A program made the translations under genes and the position numbers. A stretch of DNA of 33,807 nt from a virus, in the IMG/VR virus record IMGVR_UViG_3300008625_000041, positions 1 to 33,807 of that record; one strand, 5' to 3'. Shown piece after piece: positions 26,226 to 33,807 of this stretch (the first letter of the stretch is position 1; the number at the start of each line of letters is the position of its first letter). The notes below the pieces were generated by a model. That model saw only the letters and a list, made by a program, of their open reading frames with translations. It had not been told where the DNA came from and did no database searches.

Positions 26226-26256
26226 AAAAAAGGGAAGTGAAAACTTCCCTTTTTTT
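26226..26256. terminator. Bidirectional rho-independent terminator
   Basis: A 13-bp stem with core GGGAAGT/ACTTCCC closes on a GAAA tetraloop, flanked by six A's and seven T's. It reads as an intrinsic terminator in both directions. On the plus strand it ends the small membrane-protein transcript; on the minus strand it ends the tRNA/gp55 transcript. It therefore insulates the two units. Confidence 0.93.
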
Positions 26257-26263
26257 ATTTTTG

Positions 26264-26334
26264 AGCGGGTGGACGGAATCGAACCGACAGCATCAGCTTG
26301 GAAGGCTGAGGTATTACCATTATACGACACTCGC
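26264..26334 (-). tRNA. tRNA-Gly (TCC)
   Basis: A 71-nt cloverleaf with anticodon loop CTTCCAA (anticodon at 26300-26302), anticodon stem TCAGC/GCTGA and a TTCGATT T-loop. The acceptor stem GCGAGTG/CACCCGC has an A-C mismatch and the T-stem GTCGG/CCGTC has a T-T mismatch. CCA is not encoded. It decodes GGA, used frequently in the Gly-rich virion genes of this window. Confidence 0.9.
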
Positions 26335-26336
26335 AG

Positions 26337-26407
26337 AGCCGATGGAGAGAATCGAACTCCCGTCGCGGACTTACAAAGACCGAGCTAAACCACTCAGCTA
26401 CATCGGC
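26337..26407 (-). tRNA. tRNA-Thr (TGT)
   Basis: A 71-nt cloverleaf with perfect acceptor stem GCCGATG/CATCGGC, anticodon loop TTTGTAA (anticodon at 26373-26375), T-arm GGGAG-TTCGATT-CTCTC. The anticodon stem CGGTC/GTCCG has one mismatch. CCA is not encoded. It decodes ACA. Only 2 bases separate it from tRNA-Gly. Confidence 0.92.
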
Positions 26408-26415
26408 AAGTTAAG

Positions 26416-26489
26416 TGGAGCTGACTGGATTCGAACCAGCGACTTCTTCCGTGCAAGGGAAGCACTCTCCCAGACTGAGTTACAGCCCC
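26416..26489 (-). tRNA. tRNA-Ala (TGC)
   Basis: A 74-nt cloverleaf with acceptor stem GGGGCTG/CAGCTCC. This contains the G3-U70 wobble pair that specifies alanine charging, agreeing with anticodon TGC (26453-26455) in loop CTTGCAC. The anticodon stem CTTCC/GGAAG and T-arm CTGG-TTCGAAT-CCAG are intact. CCA is not encoded. It decodes GCA. Confidence 0.95.
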
Positions 26490-26507
26490 GTACTTTATGT
26501 CAATAGT

Positions 26508-26645: not shown

Positions 26646-27353
26646 TTATACATCTAATAAAGATCCAGTAAATTTCGTATTTATTTGTCCATCTATACGA
26701 AATTCTTCTCTCAAACTGTTTAAATATTTTTTAATCTCTGTTACAACTCTTGTTATATGTTGAGTATTCGATCTAGTCATTTCTCTTATCTGAAGATATA
26801 AATATTTCTTATTAAAATTCTCAATATTCTCTCTATTTTGCATTAGATATAACAAAGAGTACGCTACATCCATATCCTTTTTTCTATGAAAAATAGAAGA
26901 TATATTATTCTCTAAAAACTCACAAAATTGTGCTGTGAATTCTGTAACACCCTCTGTCTGATCTTCTTTATCTTTTTCATGACCAATATTTCTTTCAAAA
27001 TCAGCCGTAGCTATTTCTTTATGGGATTTCATTTTTTTATAGTTATTATTATTATGCAAAATTAAATAATTTTTTGCTACAATACTAAAATATGAAAATG
27101 CCTTCCCTTTTTCCTGAACATATTTGTGCATATTCAAAACTAAATTAGATACTACTTCATGCTTAACATCTTCAGTTGGTACATCAAAATAATAAAATTT
27201 AAATGTATGAATTATATTTTCAACTAACTTTTCTATAGGCACTCTAATTCGTTCATTATAGATTGTATTTCTTACTCTTGGATCTGTTTCTTTATTAAAC
27301 TCTACAATTGCATCTTCTGTAACTTGTCCAAAGTAAATCTTTCCTCTTGCCAT
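26646..27353 (-). CDS. gp55: Late-transcription sigma factor, gp55-like
   Basis: 235 aa. It starts MARGKIYFGQVTEDAIVEFN and carries a sigma-region-2-like helical segment: EDVKHEVVSNLVLNMHKYVQ, then GKAFSYFSIVAKNYLILHNN (about 65-105), which contacts the -10-like element and core polymerase. The C-terminal half (QIREMTRSNTQHITRVVTEI) is helical and basic. In T4, gp55 redirects host RNA polymerase to late TATAAATA promoters together with the gp45 clamp and gp33. No gp33 or gp45 is recognisable in this window. It is followed by a 38-aa basic gene and the tRNA cluster, and preceded by a small membrane-protein gene 3 bases away. Confidence 0.82.
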   Translation of the reverse strand: MARGKIYFGQVTEDAIVEFNKETDPRVRNTIYNERIRVPIEKLVENIIHTFKFYYFDVPTEDVKHEVVSNLVLNMHKYVQEKGKAFSYFSIVAKNYLILHNNNNYKKMKSHKEIATADFERNIGHEKDKEDQTEGVTEFTAQFCEFLENNISSIFHRKKDMDVAYSLLYLMQNRENIENFNKKYLYLQIREMTRSNTQHITRVVTEIKKYLNSLREEFRIDGQINTKFTGSLLDV

Positions 27354-27356
27354 ATT

Positions 27357-27617
27357 TTATTCCTCCTCAGTAATGAATTCATCTAATTCATTTACTGTTT
27401 CTTTTATTGTATCAAATATTGTTCCTACTTCATCATCAGCTTCGAAGTGTCCTGTAGAATCTATTTCTTCCAATCTTTCATTTACATTAATAATCTTTTC
27501 TCCAACATTACCAACATAATCTTCTAATAATTCTGTCTTTCTCATTAGATTCCAAATTATATAACCTTCAACTAAAAACGCTATAACAAAAATCCCTAAT
27601 AATATTTCTACTAACAT
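27357..27617 (-). CDS. Single-pass membrane protein with acidic C-terminal tail
   Basis: 86 aa. An N-terminal hydrophobic helix (LVEILLGIFVIAFLVEGYII, residues 2-21) is followed by a helical, acidic tail with EIDSTGHFEADDEVGTIFDT, then IKETVNELDEFITEEE. This GHFEADDEVG segment looks familiar from T4-like marine phages, but I know no function. It is probably inner-membrane anchored with its tail in the cytoplasm. It overlaps the HD-domain gene by one base and precedes gp55 by 3 bases, so it is co-expressed with the sigma factor. Confidence 0.65.
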   Translation of the reverse strand: MLVEILLGIFVIAFLVEGYIIWNLMRKTELLEDYVGNVGEKIINVNERLEEIDSTGHFEADDEVGTIFDTIKETVNELDEFITEEE

Positions 27618-28420
27618 TATGCATCTCCAAATAGTTCGTTAAACAAATCTTTAGATTTTTTATTCAAATTTTCTTCTTTAACTTCTTCAGGTTTTTCTTT
27701 AGAATCACTATCATCAGTTTTCAAATTACCTAACAAATTTTGATATTTTTCCTGATGTTTCTTTTCACTTACTTCAACTCCATGCTTCCACATATCATAT
27801 TCAATATGAGTCGCCATGCTATCTGCTTGATGTAGTATGTAAGCTATATTAGATTTTAAAGACCACTCTGGATTCCAACTTATATAATAAGATTTATTAG
27901 CTTCCTCATATAAACCATCAGTTAATCTTAACCCAATATACTCATTCTCACTCATTGGAATTTGAAAATGTCCAAGTAAAAATATTGCTCTATCTGTAAC
28001 TGTCATATATTGTAACTCACCATTGTGTGTGAATATCTCACCACGATTTTTTCTATGCCACTCTGAATCTTGTGGAACATAATAATCTTTATCCAAATCA
28101 CCAACTTTACCTAAGTCATGATGCATAGCAGCAAATATCAATTCCTCATCTGTAAAGTTTATCTTTGCGTTATTATTTACCCATACTTCTTTTAATTGAA
28201 GTGCACAATCTATAACATGAAGAACGTGTTCTACATAACCACCAACGTGAGCATTATGAAAATGTTCTTTACCACTTGCTGGCGCCATACACATTCTTTC
28301 TTCAAAGTAATCATACATCGTATTGAGTTTTTCTAACCGTTCACCCTCAAATGTATTTGTAATTAATTCTCTGAGTTTGTTCCAATTCTCTTGGATTTGT
28401 TCTGGAGTTAATTGTTTCAT
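27617..28420 (-). CDS. HD-domain phosphohydrolase
   Basis: 267 aa. The HD metal-binding set is complete: YVEHVLHVID (His65 and His68), MHHDLGKVGD (His101-Asp102) and LHQADSM (Asp200). Family members hydrolyse phosphate esters in nucleotides or cyclic dinucleotides. Residues 217-267 are a polar Lys/Glu-rich tail ending SKDLFNELFGDA, which could be an interaction motif. Substrate is unknown: dNTP hydrolysis, nucleotide salvage and signalling nucleotide breakdown are all possible. It overlaps the glycosyltransferase-like gene by one base, so it may supply or remove nucleotides for the neighbouring DNA-modification candidates, though this is inference. Confidence 0.78.
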   Translation of the reverse strand: MKQLTPEQIQENWNKLRELITNTFEGERLEKLNTMYDYFEERMCMAPASGKEHFHNAHVGGYVEHVLHVIDCALQLKEVWVNNNAKINFTDEELIFAAMHHDLGKVGDLDKDYYVPQDSEWHRKNRGEIFTHNGELQYMTVTDRAIFLLGHFQIPMSENEYIGLRLTDGLYEEANKSYYISWNPEWSLKSNIAYILHQADSMATHIEYDMWKHGVEVSEKKHQEKYQNLLGNLKTDDSDSKEKPEEVKEENLNKKSKDLFNELFGDA

Positions 28421-29757
28421 TATTTTACCTCATATCTATCTTTTGTTAATTTAATTGTTGGTTCATTTCGTAATCTATTTCTATATCCACTAAAAGATAT
28501 TCTAACTCCCCAACCTAAATATTCCATAATTTCTTTTTTACTTACAGACCTTTTTTTGTGAATAAAATCTATAACTTTCTTGTAACCTTCCGTATCACTT
28601 TTTAAAGTGGGAAGTTTTTTTATTGTATCATTTATCATATTGTTGAATGGAATAATTGCCTTTTCCCATTTACAATCTTCAAATCTTTTTAGTGATTTAT
28701 CCGACCACTCATTTCTTAAATCTGGCGTATCTAATAAATTTTCTACTTTAAGTATAAAATCATCTCCATCTTTATAATAACACCCAGCGCTATCAGCTAA
28801 CTCGTGATAATAATCATCATCGGAAAATAAATAAGGTACTCCAACACTCATACCATCTGTAGCAGATATAGCCCATCCACTATACTTTTGTTTAGCACAT
28901 ACACCTAAGTAACAAGAAGATAGTTTAGAAAAATATCCAACACGATCGTATTTATCTATTGTTATATATTCCCGTTCTTTTGATTCTGCTAACGGCACCC
29001 ATACCTCAAAATCTTTTCTTTTCTCCCATAACTTATCCATTTGTTCTAAAAACCAAGGATAGTTTTTATATGTATGTGGACGATGATTATATACAATTAT
29101 TTTTTTATCTGTAGTTTGTTTTTCATACTTTGGTATTTCCCAACCAAGATATTGTGGTTCAAGTATCTCATCTAATCTTTTTACTACGTCATTATTAAAA
29201 TGTTTCTTAGCATTTTTTAAAATTAAATTTTTCTGTCCTTGTGTATTAATACCACATCTAACCATTTCTAATAACCCTAAAAAATTTACATCCATCATAG
29301 TCATATTATAATTTGTAATTTCAGGAAATTCTGTCCAGTGAGTATATCCAATAAAACGTGGTTCTATATTAGTATTATTTATAATTGTATTTTTTAACTG
29401 TAATGTATGTTCTGGTAGATGAGAATAAACTATATCGTAATCTGTTTTTTTCCATTGTAATTGTTTAATTATATTAGAATAATCAAAGTGTACTCTCATA
29501 GCATTTGGATATGATGGTAAAGTTAAATTTAATTGAGTAGTATTTTCAAAATTAAGACTTGATATTTCGTGTGGTGAAAATATTGTCCAATGAATATCAT
29601 TACGAATCTTATTTAACTCTCTAATTATATTACCTAATACAACAACATAAGAATCTTTTTCTAAATCTTGCTGAAAGGTAATATTTGGATATACAAGAAT
29701 TTTATATTTATATTCTTTATCTAAAAATTTATCTTCTGTAAAATTTAATATATCCAT
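28420..29757 (-). CDS. GT-B glycosyltransferase-like protein with C-terminal winged-helix-like domain
   Basis: 445 aa. The layout is that of a GT-B transferase: an N-terminal Rossmann half (YKILVYPNITFQQDLEKDSY, DYDIVYSHLPEHTLQ, FIGYTHWTEFPE), then a second half with KKIIVYNHRPHTYKNYPWFL (about 218-238), YDRVGYFSKLSSCYLGVC and SGWAISATDGMSVGVPYLFS (about 294-315). The last resembles the donor-binding EAMACGxP motif of GT1/GT4 enzymes. Residues about 400-445 (SVSKKEIMEYLGWGVRISFS) have helix-turn-helix character. A glycosyltransferase carrying a DNA-binding-like tail and overlapping the Mom-like gene suggests DNA as acceptor. Alternatives are modification of a virion protein or host glycan. 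Donor sugar unknown. Confidence 0.65.
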   Translation of the reverse strand: MDILNFTEDKFLDKEYKYKILVYPNITFQQDLEKDSYVVVLGNIIRELNKIRNDIHWTIFSPHEISSLNFENTTQLNLTLPSYPNAMRVHFDYSNIIKQLQWKKTDYDIVYSHLPEHTLQLKNTIINNTNIEPRFIGYTHWTEFPEITNYNMTMMDVNFLGLLEMVRCGINTQGQKNLILKNAKKHFNNDVVKRLDEILEPQYLGWEIPKYEKQTTDKKIIVYNHRPHTYKNYPWFLEQMDKLWEKRKDFEVWVPLAESKEREYITIDKYDRVGYFSKLSSCYLGVCAKQKYSGWAISATDGMSVGVPYLFSDDDYYHELADSAGCYYKDGDDFILKVENLLDTPDLRNEWSDKSLKRFEDCKWEKAIIPFNNMINDTIKKLPTLKSDTEGYKKVIDFIHKKRSVSKKEIMEYLGWGVRISFSGYRNRLRNEPTIKLTKDRYEVK

Positions 29758-30386
29758 TATATATTTTTTAAAACTCTTTTTTTAATTTTATTATTAAGTG
29801 GTAACACATAAATATGTTTAGCAGGTAATTCTTCTGTCCATATATTTTCATCACCTTTTTTTATTCGTTGTCTAATATTCTCAAACTTCGGACTTTTTTT
29901 AGTTAACATTCTTGCATGATAAACTTTACCATCAGCAACCAATGCTCTACTTTCACTTGTCATTCCTAAATGTATAAAGTTTGTTGCTTTATAAATAACT
30001 CCATCATGTCCTTGTTTTGTATCTGCATATGATAATATAAGTTTATAATCTGTATTTTGTTTTAACCATCTTATTGCTTTACCTATGAAATAACTTTCTG
30101 TATTAGTTGGTGTACCATCTATACAACATAATCTATTTAATTCTATAACAGATTTTGGTTCATCTGGCATATAACTTTCTGCCACTCCTGCCATAGCAGG
30201 TATACCAAACATCATACTACCAATCATTTTAGGAATACCAAACTTTCCTTTTGGTGTAAAAAGACCAAAACAAAAACTAATATGTAATCCACGAATACTG
30301 TGAGAATAGTGATATTTTCTAATAAAATCCTCAACTGCATTGGTAGGAACTTTTTCAACAAAATAATCTGTAACCTTATCTTCCAA
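29757..30386 (-). CDS. Mom-like DNA-modification acyltransferase (GNAT-like)
   Basis: 209 aa. The pattern matches the phage Mu Mom family: FIRKYHYSHSIRG (21-33), VIELNRLCCIDG (80-91), NTESYFIGKAIRWLK (95-109), LILSYADTKQGHDGVIYKAT then NFIHLG (116-141). Mu Mom converts adenine in DNA to N6-carbamoylmethyl adenine, protecting phage DNA from restriction. Proteins of this group are compact GNAT-like enzymes without a classical acetyl-CoA loop. The called start is TTG at 30386 inside the end of the DruA-like gene (11-base overlap); the next in-frame Met is at residue 54, inside the conserved region, so an upstream non-ATG start is needed. It overlaps the glycosyltransferase gene by one base. Confidence 0.75.
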   Translation of the reverse strand: MEDKVTDYFVEKVPTNAVEDFIRKYHYSHSIRGLHISFCFGLFTPKGKFGIPKMIGSMMFGIPAMAGVAESYMPDEPKSVIELNRLCCIDGTPTNTESYFIGKAIRWLKQNTDYKLILSYADTKQGHDGVIYKATNFIHLGMTSESRALVADGKVYHARMLTKKSPKFENIRQRIKKGDENIWTEELPAKHIYVLPLNNKIKKRVLKNI

Positions 30387-31575
30387 CTTCTTTTAAATAC
30401 TTCTCTTTAGTTTCTTCCCAAGTTAATCCAATAATATCTCCATAAAATAAAATACCATCTTTTATTCTATTAGAATCTAATAACTTTTCATATCTTTTAC
30501 AAGCCTTTTTTGTCCACCATTCCATTACTCCATCAATATCTTTTTCTACTCTTGGTTTTAATTTTAATTCTTCTTTTGAAATTTCATTTCTTAAAAACTC
30601 TCTACTATTTTCATAAAAAGTTGAATAAAAAACTCCACGCTTAAACCCATGTTCATATTTAGAAGTTGATATCCCTAATTCTCTGAATATCAATGACATA
30701 ATTCTTTGTTTAATACCTGTTACGGGACCGCTTTCTCCACCTTTACTTGTAATATGTTTTTCATATTTATCTGCTCTATTTTCTTTATACCACTCATGCC
30801 ACTTCTTAAAATAATCATCATCTGGTTTCAAAGAAATTCTTCCCTTTGATTCTCCAAGAGTTTTCCAATATGGAATACCATTATACATCGAATGTATACC
30901 ATATAATGATGTAGTAGTCATACCCACTAATTTTTCACCATATAACTCTTCCCACTTCTCTCTAAATATTTTAGTAGATAATAGAGCTGCTATTAACTTA
31001 CCACCTAAAAAATTATAACCTAATGGTTGTGTAGAACAAATCGTAGTTGCTATAGCAGAATGTTTTAATCTACCATCCTCAAGTTTATTTTGTTTACTCC
31101 AACCAATCCAAGAATCTCTTGCTGTAATTGATATAACATCTGAACCTAAACATACCATTCCTAATATTTTATTACTTGTTTCATCACTTATAATAAATTT
31201 TATATTTCTTCCAGGATTTGCAGTAAACTCCATTGTATGTACAAGCCGCCTAACTAAACTCCAATATTCATTTTGTTTAGAATTTCCTTGTTCTATACAA
31301 ATTATTTTTGGTTTAATAGATCGTATCTCTTCTAAAGTTTTCTCTCTATCCAATATATTAGTAGGCTTCCATAACTTAGGTTTTAATGTATGAATTTTAC
31401 TTGCTTTTTGACGTATTTCATAATCGTTATGATTAAATTCTTTCCATTTTTTATATAATGTAGATTCCTCTACTGTCATTTCCTTTAAAGAATTCATATG
31501 ATCTATGAAATCTTTTTTTTCTTTATCATATATAAATTTATCTGGATCGTCAAAAAATTGTTCGAATAATTCCAT
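30376..31575 (-). CDS. DruA-like (DUF4338-type) protein
   Basis: 399 aa. The core (about 105-245) reads LVRRLVHTMEFTANPGRNIK, FIISDETSNKILGMVCLGSD, ISITARDSWIGWSKQNK, ICSTQPLGYNFLGGKLIAAL, then LVGMTTTSLYGIHSMYNGIP and WKTLGESKGR. The RDSWIGW, LGxNFLGGKLIA and YWKTLGESKGR blocks match the DUF4338/DruA pattern, known from the Druantia defence system. The N-terminal 95 residues and about 150 C-terminal residues (KRGVFYSTFYENSREFLRNE) are additional. The C-terminal core block resembles the Mom YKATNFIHLG block, hinting at a shared GNAT-like fold. It is immediately upstream of and overlapping the Mom-like gene, so a DNA modification or protection role is likelier than host defence here. Confidence 0.72.
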   Translation of the reverse strand: MELFEQFFDDPDKFIYDKEKKDFIDHMNSLKEMTVEESTLYKKWKEFNHNDYEIRQKASKIHTLKPKLWKPTNILDREKTLEEIRSIKPKIICIEQGNSKQNEYWSLVRRLVHTMEFTANPGRNIKFIISDETSNKILGMVCLGSDVISITARDSWIGWSKQNKLEDGRLKHSAIATTICSTQPLGYNFLGGKLIAALLSTKIFREKWEELYGEKLVGMTTTSLYGIHSMYNGIPYWKTLGESKGRISLKPDDDYFKKWHEWYKENRADKYEKHITSKGGESGPVTGIKQRIMSLIFRELGISTSKYEHGFKRGVFYSTFYENSREFLRNEISKEELKLKPRVEKDIDGVMEWWTKKACKRYEKLLDSNRIKDGILFYGDIIGLTWEETKEKYLKEVGR

Positions 31576-31595
31576 TATAACCTATTTTAAAAATT

Positions 31596-32138
31596 CTAAG
31601 GCTGGTTGCTTTTCATATTCCAATCTGCTACACCATTATCACTTAACTTATAAATTTCAGCATCAGTAAACTTATATGGTGCCTTACCTGGAGATTCTAA
31701 AACATCTATACGATTTACCCATCGTTTGTGCATAGTATCTCTAACTTGATAAACTCCATCCTTCTCACCTCTTGTTCCCTTCAAGAGCACAAAATCGCCA
31801 TAGTCAAGAAATCCACCAAATCTCTTCAAAAGATTTCTACTCACCGCTATAAATTTATATTCGGATGCTCTTTGCACCCTTATTCGCGTTCCATCCGCCA
31901 GAATGTTCGGTGTAGAATCAGTTTGACGAGTTACTGGATGATACATTGTTACATCAACCTCAATACCTACGGATTCATATTCATTTAATCTAATCTGTAA
32001 AGCATTTGCTGTTTGTGTCAACTCTTCTAACTTATTAGTCCAAATGTCTTTTTCTTTTTCAATGAACCGTATACTTACTATAGCACTTATTAATACAACC
32101 AAAATTGTATAACACAAAATCAGTTTTCTAGTTTTCAT
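31596..32138 (-). CDS. Membrane-anchored 3D/RlpA-like double-psi beta-barrel protein
   Basis: 180 aa. A basic start and hydrophobic helix (KTRKLILCYTILVVLISAIV, residues 2-21) form a signal anchor, then a helical stretch (about 28-55). A double-psi barrel follows (about 60-150): VDVTMYHPVTRQTDSTPN, ADGTRIRVQ, FIAVSRNLLKRFGGFLDYGD, YQVRDTMHKRWVNRIDVLE. The last fits the 3D-domain pattern, with two of three signature aspartates (D134 and D145) present and the first replaced by Ser (IAVS). Such domains occur in murein-acting proteins, so this may help remodel peptidoglycan in lysis. It is probably periplasmic, facing outward from the inner membrane. Confidence 0.7.
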   Translation of the reverse strand: MKTRKLILCYTILVVLISAIVSIRFIEKEKDIWTNKLEELTQTANALQIRLNEYESVGIEVDVTMYHPVTRQTDSTPNILADGTRIRVQRASEYKFIAVSRNLLKRFGGFLDYGDFVLLKGTRGEKDGVYQVRDTMHKRWVNRIDVLESPGKAPYKFTDAEIYKLSDNGVADWNMKSNQP

Positions 32139-32158
32139 AATAATCCCTATTGTTAGTT

Positions 32159-32168
32159 AATAAATATA
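32159..32168 (-). promoter_or_regulatory. Candidate phage promoter motif upstream of the 3D/RlpA-like gene
   Basis: Sense-strand TATATTTATT (9/10 match to TATATTTATA) lies 21 bases before the ATG at 32138, identical spacing to the perfect copy upstream of 33167. It sits in a 78-base intergenic gap and may start transcription of the 31596-to-26508 operon. Confidence 0.35.
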
Positions 32169-32216
32169 ACCTTAATTCTTATAACTTACATAATTTATTA
32201 TTAAATATCAAGTCAT

Positions 32217-32771
32217 TTATATCCAATATTTTTCTTGATCTGTATACCAACTAGCTATGGTATATCTATTATGTTTATAAACTTTTCTAACTCCATGCGC
32301 ATATTTAATATCAGATGGGAAAATAATTAATGTCCCTTTTTGTGGTATTATATCACCAAACTTCTGAAAATAAAATTGTCCACCTTCAAAATCATCATTT
32401 AAAAATATTATAGATGAATGTGTTCTAAATGGAGTATCATTTGGTTCTCCTGATGGATAAAATGCATTATCAGCATGTAATCCCAATTTATCTCCAGGTT
32501 TCCACCTAACTATCTGTAAAGTATCTCTTTTAACATTTGTATTATAATATTTTTTTATTCTTTTATATGTTCTATTTGAAACATAATCTAATACTTTCCG
32601 TAATTCTACTGATTTAATACTATGATACCACATAACCCTATAACGAAAACTTTCTGCTTGTGGTACTTCTTCTGGATTCTGTAAAACTATATCGTAATTA
32701 TTCTCATAATACTCTATTAAAAATGAGCATAACTCATTTGATATAAAACCTGGAAATGATAGAAAGCTCAC
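32217..32771 (-). CDS. 2-oxoglutarate/Fe(II) dioxygenase, prolyl-4-hydroxylase-like
   Basis: 184 aa. The double-stranded beta-helix signature is complete: LGLHADNAF with the HxD pair H99/D101, YAHGVRKV with the distal His159, and RYTIASWYT whose Arg169 would bind the 2-oxoglutarate carboxylate. WKPGDKLGLHAD, SSIIFLNDDFEGGQFYFQ and PQKGTLIIFPSD are typical P4H strands. Marine phage enzymes of this kind are of unknown substrate; prolyl, lysyl or nucleobase hydroxylation are all possible. The start is a GTG (32769-32771) directly abutting the TAA of the upstream small protein, so translation is probably reinitiated from it and the two products may be partners. Confidence 0.88.
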   Translation of the reverse strand: MSFLSFPGFISNELCSFLIEYYENNYDIVLQNPEEVPQAESFRYRVMWYHSIKSVELRKVLDYVSNRTYKRIKKYYNTNVKRDTLQIVRWKPGDKLGLHADNAFYPSGEPNDTPFRTHSSIIFLNDDFEGGQFYFQKFGDIIPQKGTLIIFPSDIKYAHGVRKVYKHNRYTIASWYTDQEKYWI

Positions 32772-33167
32772 TTACCCTGGTAAAGGACCTCCAGGAAAAT
32801 CAAAAAATGAACAAGTTAATGGATCATCATCTCCACCTACAGAAGCTGGAGCCCACCCCCATCCATCAGATTCACTACTTGAATACGAACTTGTTCCGAT
32901 ATATTCCCATTGTTGTTCTAACTCAGATCCACTAAATGCCAAAAGGCCCCAATGATTATAGGTACAAAACTGTAAATTTACTTCAGATCCTGTTAATGCT
33001 GTTTCTGACCAATAATAGGCTGAACAAGAAGATGTAGCTTCAGTTAAAAATATGTGTTCTCTTGGATCCAAATTTATTGAGCCAGAAAGCGCATTTATTC
33101 TTGCTTGTTTAGCATAAGTTGGTTTAAAATGTACTATACCAAAATATCTGTGTCCTCTAATTGCCAT
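32772..33167 (-). CDS. Small Ser/Gly/Trp-rich protein ending in a Pro-Gly tail
   Basis: 131 aa, starting MAIRGHRYFGIVHFKPTYAK. There are YYWSETALTGSEVN, YNHWGLLAFSGSELEQQWEY and a SSYSSSESDGWGWAP run, and the C-terminus is DFPGGPLPG. The TGSE and FSGSE turns resemble those in this phage's virion proteins, so a structural role is plausible; I recognise no family. AAGGA lies about 6 bases before the ATG. Its TAA directly precedes the GTG start of the P4H-like gene, so the two are co-translated. The Pro-Gly tail is of the xPG type that prolyl hydroxylases of other systems modify, which makes the pair interesting but does not prove a substrate relation. Confidence 0.6.
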   Translation of the reverse strand: MAIRGHRYFGIVHFKPTYAKQARINALSGSINLDPREHIFLTEATSSCSAYYWSETALTGSEVNLQFCTYNHWGLLAFSGSELEQQWEYIGTSSYSSSESDGWGWAPASVGGDDDPLTCSFFDFPGGPLPG

Positions 33168-33187
33168 AACTATTCCTTAATATTAAC

Positions 33188-33217
33188 TATAAATATACTG
33201 TTACACTTATAAATATA
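33188..33217 (-). promoter_or_regulatory. Tandem TATATTTATA motifs, candidate phage promoter
   Basis: Two perfect sense-strand copies of TATATTTATA at 33188-33197 and 33208-33217, exactly 20 bases apart, lie 21 and 41 bases before the ATG at 33167. The distal copy is flanked by CACT and AGTG, a short inverted repeat. This is the clearest example of the recurring upstream motif of this window. Confidence 0.42.
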
Positions 33218-33231
33218 GTGATTCAAATTTT

Positions 33232-33807
33232 TCAAAGTAAATGAGCCTCTCCTTCAATATTTCCTGCTCTTGTAACCTCTATTAATTCTACTTTAGAATG
33301 ATACTCAACCATATTATTAGCCCCAACATAACTGAAAGAACTGCGTATTCCATCTTTAATGTCATATAATATCCTATGTAATTTACCTTTGTATGGAATA
33401 ACTTTATGATTTCCTTCAACATTTTTATCATCTCCTCTTGATTTTTTAGAGTCCAAAGATGCTGAACCTCTATACTTCTTATATAGCTGTTCATTAGGCC
33501 ACTTACCTACTTTTTCAATTTCTCCTGGAGTTTCTTTTGTACCAGATAGCAGGGAACCCAACATAATCGAATCAGCCCCACAAGCAAGTCCTTTACACAC
33601 ATCACCAATAGTGCGAACACCACCATCAGCAATAATGGGAGTATCAAAAGTATCAGCAACGGCAACACAATCAATGAGAGCAGACACCTGAGGGATTCCC
33701 ACACCCGTTCTGATTCTCGTTTCACATAACGATCCATTTCCAATTCCGACTCTAATCGCGTCTGCTCCTTTTTCACATAAGTATTCACACGCTTCTCCTG
33801 TCGCAAC
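33232..33807 (-). CDS. IMP dehydrogenase / GMP reductase family protein (5' end beyond window)
   Basis: The frame is open from the window edge to TGA at 33232: the last 191 residues of a TIM-barrel enzyme. It starts VATGEACEYLCEKGADAIRV, then the catalytic-cysteine loop GIGNGSLCETRIRTGVGIPQ, the phosphate-binding IIADGGVRTIGDV, ACGADSIMLGSLLSGTKETP and the terminal VIPYKGKLHRILYDIKDGIR region. IMPDH makes XMP for GTP synthesis; GMP reductase does the reverse reaction. The terminal SYVGANN segment is closer to GMP reductases, but the subfamily is not settled. The enzyme would alter guanine/adenine nucleotide balance during infection. A 64-base gap carrying promoter-like motifs separates it from the next gene. 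Confidence 0.88.
   Translation of the reverse strand, partial: VATGEACEYLCEKGADAIRVGIGNGSLCETRIRTGVGIPQVSALIDCVAVADTFDTPIIADGGVRTIGDVCKGLACGADSIMLGSLLSGTKETPGEIEKVGKWPNEQLYKKYRGSASLDSKKSRGDDKNVEGNHKVIPYKGKLHRILYDIKDGIRSSFSYVGANNMVEYHSKVELIEVTRAGNIEGEAHLL

What the first reader, a model, noticed from the sequence alone, without database searches (positions are those of the whole stretch)
28420..31575. Overlapping glycosyltransferase, Mom-like and DruA-like genes: candidate DNA hypermodification module
Three genes overlap end to start (1 and 11 bases): a GT-B-like transferase with a DNA-binding-like tail, a protein with the Mom family pattern, and a DUF4338/DruA-like protein. Mom is known to modify adenine in DNA. 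A glycosyltransferase beside it suggests either a further-decorated base or parallel modifications. The HD phosphohydrolase overlaps the same operon and a purine enzyme lies in the neighbouring unit. I know of no characterised pathway that combines these parts.
Basis: partly seen in the sequence, partly recalled or inferred. Interest (0 to 1): 0.82.

Follow-up and report, generated by a model that had tools for sequence, protein, structure and literature searches.

The report
Phage DNA-modification locus with swap slot
In uncultured aquatic phages, genes that probably decorate the phage's DNA (Mom, a Mom-shaped DruA-like protein and a glycosyltransferase) sit together by the replication genes, and one position just before the glycosyltransferase carries a different gene, often a DNA-cutting or DNA-modifying one, even between almost identical phages; here that gene is Mom.

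Summary
The three genes lie at the stated coordinates with 11-nt and 1-nt overlaps, and the HD gene overlaps the glycosyltransferase (GT) by 1 nt. Mom is a true Mom (137 bits, cutoff 27), and the residue matching Mu Mom S124 is kept. The 399-aa protein is DruA/DUF4338; its predicted structure is a GNAT fold whose best PDB match is Mu Mom (Z 10.1). GT is GT-B/GT4-like with a conserved winged-helix-like tail. Linkage recurs: 57 of 64 loci from a GT-only scan with at least 3 kb upstream also carry Mom, and 65 of 78 carry DruA. The usual order is Mom-Mom-X-GT-PolB-clamp-DruA-loader, and 7 of 10 GT clusters (60% identity) have both. The GT family is absent from 50,697 phage records.

X, bounded by the DruA (or Mom) stop and the GT start codon, is replaced by unrelated genes (GmrSD/HNH-like, ParB/REase-like, HATPase, adenine methylase) while flanks stay 93-99.9% identical.

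My reading: a replication-linked DNA-modification locus with exchangeable conflict cargo. DNA as GT's substrate and the chemistry are inferred; no modified base has been shown.

The parts
30376..31575 (-). DruA-like (DUF4338) protein, 399 aa, GNAT fold; left border of the variable slot
   Evidence: PF14236 95.2 bits; PADLOC DruA 7.6e-25; AlphaFold2 pLDDT 90.9; VIA best hit Mu Mom 8bv8 Z 10.1
29757..30386 (-). Mom-family DNA modification protein, 209 aa (TTG start, 11-nt overlap with DruA); occupant of the variable slot
   Evidence: PF25680 137.1 bits; profile hit to Mu Mom 8bv8 E=2.5e-23; Mu H58, Y59, S124, S146, D149, Y159 conserved
30093..30095 (-). codon of Mom Ser98, equivalent of Mu Mom Ser124 (mutated in the structure titled 'inactive mutant S124A')
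   Evidence: alignment with Mu Mom from NC_000929
28420..29757 (-). GT-B/GT4-like glycosyltransferase, 445 aa; its start codon is the right border of the slot (1-nt overlap with Mom)
   Evidence: model pLDDT 87.3; VIA Z 28.4 to 7qsg over 339 residues
28423..28596 (-). C-terminal winged-helix-like tail of the glycosyltransferase (residues 388-445)
   Evidence: 3 helices plus 2 strands in the model; conserved; in 58 of 152 GT proteins and in no non-GT ORF of the fetched loci
27617..28420 (-). HD phosphohydrolase-like protein, 1-nt overlap with GT; kept beside GT across the window lineage
   Evidence: PHROG 28876 E=4.7e-8, Pfam HD weak; synteny
27357..27617 (-). small membrane-anchor-like protein, syntenic part of the same operon
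   Evidence: synteny in relatives; function unknown
26646..27353 (-). unknown protein at the end of the operon; lies directly upstream of DNA polymerase B in relative G021 (L305)
   Evidence: synteny
29758..30375 (-). variable slot between the DruA stop and the GT start; holds Mom here and unrelated genes in relatives

Best explanation
This is the window's version of a DNA-modification locus found in a broad lineage of uncultured aquatic T4-like phages and normally built into the replication module (Mom-Mom-X-GT-PolB-clamp-DruA-clamp loader). Proposed mechanism: Mom puts its carbamoylmethyl-type group on adenine N6 of phage DNA (established for Mu Mom; inferred here from homology and conserved residues). 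The DruA-like protein, a second GNAT/Mom-fold protein, makes or recognises another mark (inferred). GT, held on DNA by its winged-helix-like tail in this lineage, adds sugar to phage DNA (inferred). The gene immediately before GT and coupled to it (X) is exchangeable cargo: among those with a recognisable domain, mostly DNA-attacking proteins (GmrSD/HNH-like, ParB/REase-like, HATPase types) and sometimes extra modification enzymes (Mom as here, adenine methylase, further glycosyltransferases). Cargo would be swapped by recombination through the conserved flanking genes, letting the phage change the weapon used against rival or host DNA while its own marks protect it. Shown: the linkage, predicted folds, the slot and the swapping. 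Inferred: catalysis, DNA as GT's substrate, and the conflict role.
For: Mom is a true family member with Mu S124 and D149 kept. DruA is a GNAT fold closest to Mu Mom (Z 10.1, next 8.7), and PolB-clamp-[DruA]-loader alternates with PolB-clamp-[Mom]-loader. Linkage in a GT-only scan: 57/64 loci with Mom, 65/78 with DruA, 70/78 with PolB; all 14 long GT records carry at least two Moms; 7 of 10 GT clusters have both, in several different gene orders. Mom scan: independent DruA-GT-Mom-Mom in L171, L180, L181. Slot swapping: L026/L027 are 99.9% identical over 7,954 bp starting 3 nt before the GT ATG, yet the slot genes are unrelated; L253/L297 have flanks 98.8% and 97.4% identical with unrelated X. 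The same cargo families lie before GT in both contexts. Cargo annotations.
Against: No modified base has been measured in any of these phages. The GT core's solved relatives are lipid, thiol, polysaccharide and protein glycosyltransferases. The wHTH-like tail is missing from the PolB-linked GTs (58 of 152 have it). No hydroxymethylated acceptor pathway is evident: no thymidylate-synthase family member was found in 3 of 14 long GT records, and the one read looks like a dUMP-type enzyme. DruA and Mom show no sequence-profile similarity. Some GT phages lack Mom (G013, G002). Many cargo proteins have no Pfam match, so the conflict-cargo label rests on the minority with clear domains.
Confidence: 0.55

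Rival explanations
1. Homing hotspot: the position before GT is an insertion site for free-standing homing endonucleases and other selfish genes, as common in T4-like phages; the modification genes are bystanders and the turnover reflects gene drive rather than weaponry.
For: Many cargo proteins carry HNH-type domains and some have GIY-YIG-like N-termini (by eye); empty sites exist, with DruA directly next to GT (L018, L044, L046, L066, L075); boundaries are abrupt.
Against: Cargo also includes Mom, an adenine methylase with a companion protein, HATPase proteins and extra glycosyltransferases, which are not homing enzymes; most cargo is tightly coupled to GT (usually -13 to +10 nt); the same cargo families precede GT in two different gene contexts.
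Confidence: 0.2
2. GT is not a DNA enzyme: it glycosylates a virion protein or the host surface, and Mom is unrelated cargo beside it.
For: Closest solved relatives are GT4 enzymes for small molecules, lipids, polysaccharide and protein; cyanophage GT clusters have been read as O-antigen modification (PMC7824862).
Against: A conserved wHTH-like tail on this branch and a diverged one on a distant branch; GT overlaps or abuts PolB in the common layout; it keeps company with Mom and DruA through several rearrangements.
Confidence: 0.2
3. The DruA-like protein is not a modification enzyme but a DNA-reading, regulatory or counter-defence protein (for example a decoy against host Druantia-type systems). 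This can be true alongside the best explanation.
For: The invariant N188 seems to fall where Mom has its essential serine (by eye); phage DruA is shared by cyanophages and pelagiphages with no Mom next to it; DUF4338 GNAT domains occur as putative effectors fused to DndF (PMC10853773).
Against: GNAT fold closest to Mom, with many invariant residues over a deep family; a replication-module position that Mom occupies in other phages.
Confidence: 0.3

Closest known systems
Phage Mu Mom (N6-adenine carbamoylmethylation)
   Same: Same family: over the Pfam cutoff, profile hit to 8bv8, conserved S124, D149, H58, Y59
   Different: Lies in a replication-linked or swap-slot context with GT and DruA; elsewhere in the lineage Mom occurs as tandem pairs about 41-51% identical; Mu has one mom gene controlled by com
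Mom coupled to REase domains in jumbo phages (PMC7824862)
   Same: Mom next to DNA-attacking proteins, proposed to protect self and attack rival DNA
   Different: Here the nuclease is a separate, exchangeable gene coupled to a glycosyltransferase, with DruA and PolB in the set
DruA of Druantia type I / DUF4338; DruA-like proteins of Synechococcus phages (PMC12774648)
   Same: Same Pfam and PADLOC family; predicted GNAT fold
   Different: No Druantia helicase (DruE) gene recognised nearby; sits in the phage replication module beside Mom and GT
T4 alpha- and beta-glucosyltransferases (DNA hmC glucosylation)
   Same: GT-B-type glycosyltransferase in a T4-like phage; proposed DNA substrate
   Different: GT4-like core plus wHTH-like tail; no hmC pathway found
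GmrSD/BrxU family type IV restriction enzymes
   Same: Several slot genes carry the GmrSD_N domain and a C-terminal HNH-like region
   Different: Encoded by a phage, in an exchange slot next to its own glycosyltransferase

Membership tests
Mom family (PF25680) | HMM score above curated cutoff | tested here: met
   137.1 bits against 27.1
Mom family (PF25680) | Conserved catalytic-site residues of Mu Mom (S124, D149 and others) | tested here: met
   S98=S124, D122=D149, H26=H58, Y27=Y59
Mom family (PF25680) | Carbamoylmethylation of adenine N6 in DNA | not testable with these tools
   needs LC-MS of DNA
DruA/DUF4338 (PF14236) | HMM score above curated cutoff | tested here: met
   95.2 bits against 27; PADLOC 7.6e-25
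DruA/DUF4338 (PF14236) | GNAT fold | tested here: met
   predicted model; top Foldseek and VIA hits mostly GNATs, best VIA hit Mu Mom Z 10.1
Druantia defence system | DruE helicase and partner genes in the same operon | tested here: not met
   neighbouring ORFs 26646-33702 give no such gene; only a 33.8-kb fragment was available
GT-B / GT4 glycosyltransferases | two-domain GT-B fold | tested here: met
   Z 28.4 to 7qsg, 339 residues
GT-B / GT4 glycosyltransferases | Pfam Glycos_transf_1 score above cutoff; E-x7-E motif | tested here: not met
   22.1 bits against 26.4; second acidic position is invariant D301, the first position is variable (by eye)
T4-type DNA glucosyltransferases | acts on hydroxymethylated DNA bases | not testable with these tools
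   no TS-family enzyme found in 3 of 14 long GT records; activity unknown
Mom / GNAT superfamily relation of DruA | sequence-profile homology to Mom | tested here: inconclusive
   hhalign finds none, structure best hit is Mom
Restriction-modification / conflict cassette | nuclease or modification genes at one exchangeable site | tested here: met
   sharp cassette borders with unrelated occupants; activity untested and many occupants lack a known domain

The most novel reading that the evidence does not exclude
Mom and GT act in series in the PolB-linked phages: Mom adds a carboxamide to adenine N6 (the same -CH2-CO-NH2 end as an asparagine side chain) and GT glycosylates that amide, giving a sugar-bearing adenine not yet described. 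The exchangeable neighbour is a nuclease that destroys rival DNA lacking (or bearing other) marks, so GT plus cargo is a phage-borne restriction system built on glycosylation with a replaceable warhead.
Probability: 0.13. Interest if true: 0.92.

Novelty: new variant of a known kind. Interest (0 to 1): 0.7.

Why it matters
It points to a DNA-modification and phage-conflict locus in a lineage whose glycosyltransferase is absent from 50,697 deposited phage records, makes two long-standing unknowns testable (what DruA/DUF4338 does, and whether phages build multi-step adenine modifications), and shows a single-gene swap site that can be mined for new nucleases and modification enzymes.

Tried and rejected
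Sequence-level homology of DruA and Mom: hhalign found nothing; only structure suggests it. TAGT (PF20691) and adenylosuccinate synthetase/PurZ (PF00709, for a 2-aminoadenine pathway) were absent from 26 related records, so the IMPDH and HD genes are not evidence for a Z-genome pathway; HD has no sequence match in the PDB. Window GT and a PolB-type GT: no match in INPHARED phages. GT in bacterial genomes: one marine MAG contig of the same layout (L306, probably phage) and two remote hits. wHTH tail in other proteins: none. T4 alpha/beta-GT do not appear among the structural hits shown; that does not exclude a relation. Literature: no paper in the library combines 'Mom-like', glycosyltransferase and phage, or Mom and DUF4338. 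The promoter/terminator scan was no better than shuffles. One family search failed on wrong coordinates, and one script stopped after its main output.

Full report
What is there. On the minus strand the window carries, 5' to 3', a DruA-like gene (31575-30376), Mom (30386-29757), a glycosyltransferase (29757-28420), an HD-domain gene (28420-27617), a small membrane-anchor-like gene and an unknown 235-aa gene. The window is a fragment of a myovirus: baseplate-wedge, SbcC-like, primase and RusA-like genes follow.

Identities. Mom scores 137 bits (cutoff 27), and its family profile finds phage Mu Mom 8bv8 at E=2.5e-23. Aligned with Mu Mom from the Mu genome, the window protein keeps H58, Y59, E108, R111, E123, S124, S146, D149 and Y159; S124 is the residue mutated in the structure titled 'inactive mutant S124A'. 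The 399-aa protein is DUF4338/DruA. Its AlphaFold2 model (pLDDT 90.9) is a GNAT fold; among the 1000 chains re-aligned, Mu Mom ranks first (Z 10.1, 176 residues, 3.8 A), ahead of other GNATs at 8.7. Profile-profile comparison finds no sequence homology, so the kinship rests on structure only. That DUF4338 is a GNAT domain was already noted for DndF (PMC10853773), and DruA-like proteins in Synechococcus phages were reported in PMC12774648. GT is a GT-B/GT4-like enzyme (model pLDDT 87; Z 28.4 to 7qsg over 339 residues) with a C-terminal winged-helix-like tail more conserved than the core.

Linkage. Three separate scans of 2.9 million viral contigs were used: DruA, Mom and GT. In the GT scan, which selected on neither Mom nor DruA, 57 of 64 loci with more than 3 kb upstream also hold Mom, 65 of 78 hold DruA and 70 of 78 hold DNA polymerase B. 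The usual order is Mom-Mom-X-GT-PolB-clamp-DruA-clamp loader. All 14 long records tested (126-253 kb) have at least two Mom genes. For comparison, the window Mom finds matches in only 285 of 50,697 phage records (a conservative single-query search). These loci are related, so raw counts overstate independence; grouped at 60% GT identity there are 10 clusters, 7 with Mom, 8 with DruA and 7 with both. Proximity survives rearrangement: GT-DruA-PolB, GT-PolB-clamp-DruA, DruA-GT-HD, DruA-GT-Mom-Mom and Mom-HD-Mom-GT-DruA all occur. In L305 the window's genes lie on one contig with the replication genes: DruA-GT-HD-...-PolB-clamp-Mom-loader. The position between clamp and loader is held by DruA in many phages and by Mom in others.

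The slot. In the window lineage DruA and GT are constant, but what lies between them is not. Occupants include GmrSD_N/HNH proteins (L020, L023; below cutoff in L036 and L087), an adenine methylase (L024, L026), HATPase proteins (L029, L068), a ParB-like protein (L048, weak), a TET-associated glycosyltransferase (L049), a second GT4 (L035), Mom, and several families with no Pfam match, among them ParB/REase-like and GIY-YIG-like proteins recognised only by eye and by clustering; in the PolB-linked context a PLOD-type glycosyltransferase also occurs there (L232). Some near relatives have no occupant. Pairs of contigs show recent exchange: L026 and L027 are 99.9% identical over 7,954 bp beginning 3 nt before the GT start codon, with unrelated genes before it; L068/L070 and L030/L023 show both borders, at the DruA stop and the GT start. 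The same happens in the PolB-linked context between the Mom stop and the GT start: L253/L297 have flanks 98.8% and 97.4% identical and unrelated X genes; 83 such pairs were found and the 14 best examined. The same cargo families precede GT in both contexts, so cargo follows GT rather than DruA. Window Mom is one such cargo gene; a sister contig carries another Mom at its edge (L304).

Interpretation. I read the locus as replication-linked DNA modification (Mom shown by homology; DruA and GT inferred) with exchangeable conflict cargo. PMC7824862 proposed a related idea for jumbo phages, in which Mom fused to nuclease domains protects self while the nuclease attacks host or rival DNA. Which base GT would decorate is open. 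A classical hydroxymethyl route is not evident, since no thymidylate-synthase family member was found in 3 of 14 long GT records and the one read has the Asn typical of dUMP enzymes (the Asn rule is from general knowledge). Glycosylation of Mom's amide is possible but unproved, and GT exists without Mom in some long records (G013).

Limits. IMG/VR contigs are fragments; ORF calls are mechanical; no expression or chemistry is available. Many slot proteins have no recognised domain, so the 'conflict cargo' label rests on a minority. The homing-endonuclease rival is not excluded for the nuclease-type cargo.

Noticed in passing
26263-26489 (minus): Three tRNA genes (Gly-tcc, Thr-tgt, Ala-tgc); the plus-strand ORF at 26237-26506 is the usual antisense artefact of tRNA genes.
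   Followed up: yes
L021 2437-3090, L046 7761-8423, L023/L024/L026/L027 about 70-aa ORFs after GT: A second small variable position between GT and HD holds a 70-75 aa protein or a 217-220 aa protein of unknown function in relatives.
   Followed up: no
L045 8001-9335: One contig carries the GT (50% identical) between the primase and SbcC-like genes, away from DruA and HD, suggesting the gene can move or be duplicated.
   Followed up: no
L092, L119, L232 and other loci: Mom genes occur as tandem, diverged pairs (about 41-51% identical) in most PolB-linked loci; why two copies are kept is unknown.
   Followed up: partly
L306 (TMED198 MAG contig): A contig binned as a marine bacterium has DruA-720 aa-GT-small ORF-HD and is probably a misbinned phage.
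   Followed up: no
32217-32771 and 33232-33807: 2OG-Fe(II) oxygenase gene and an IMPDH-type fragment running off the window end; IMPDH-like genes occur near the locus in a few relatives (L019, L038, L126).
   Followed up: partly
L003 4767-5888 (Synechococcus phage S-SCSM2R): A DruA-like gene is annotated in GenBank as 'methylcarbamoylase mom', in line with the structural similarity found here.
   Followed up: no
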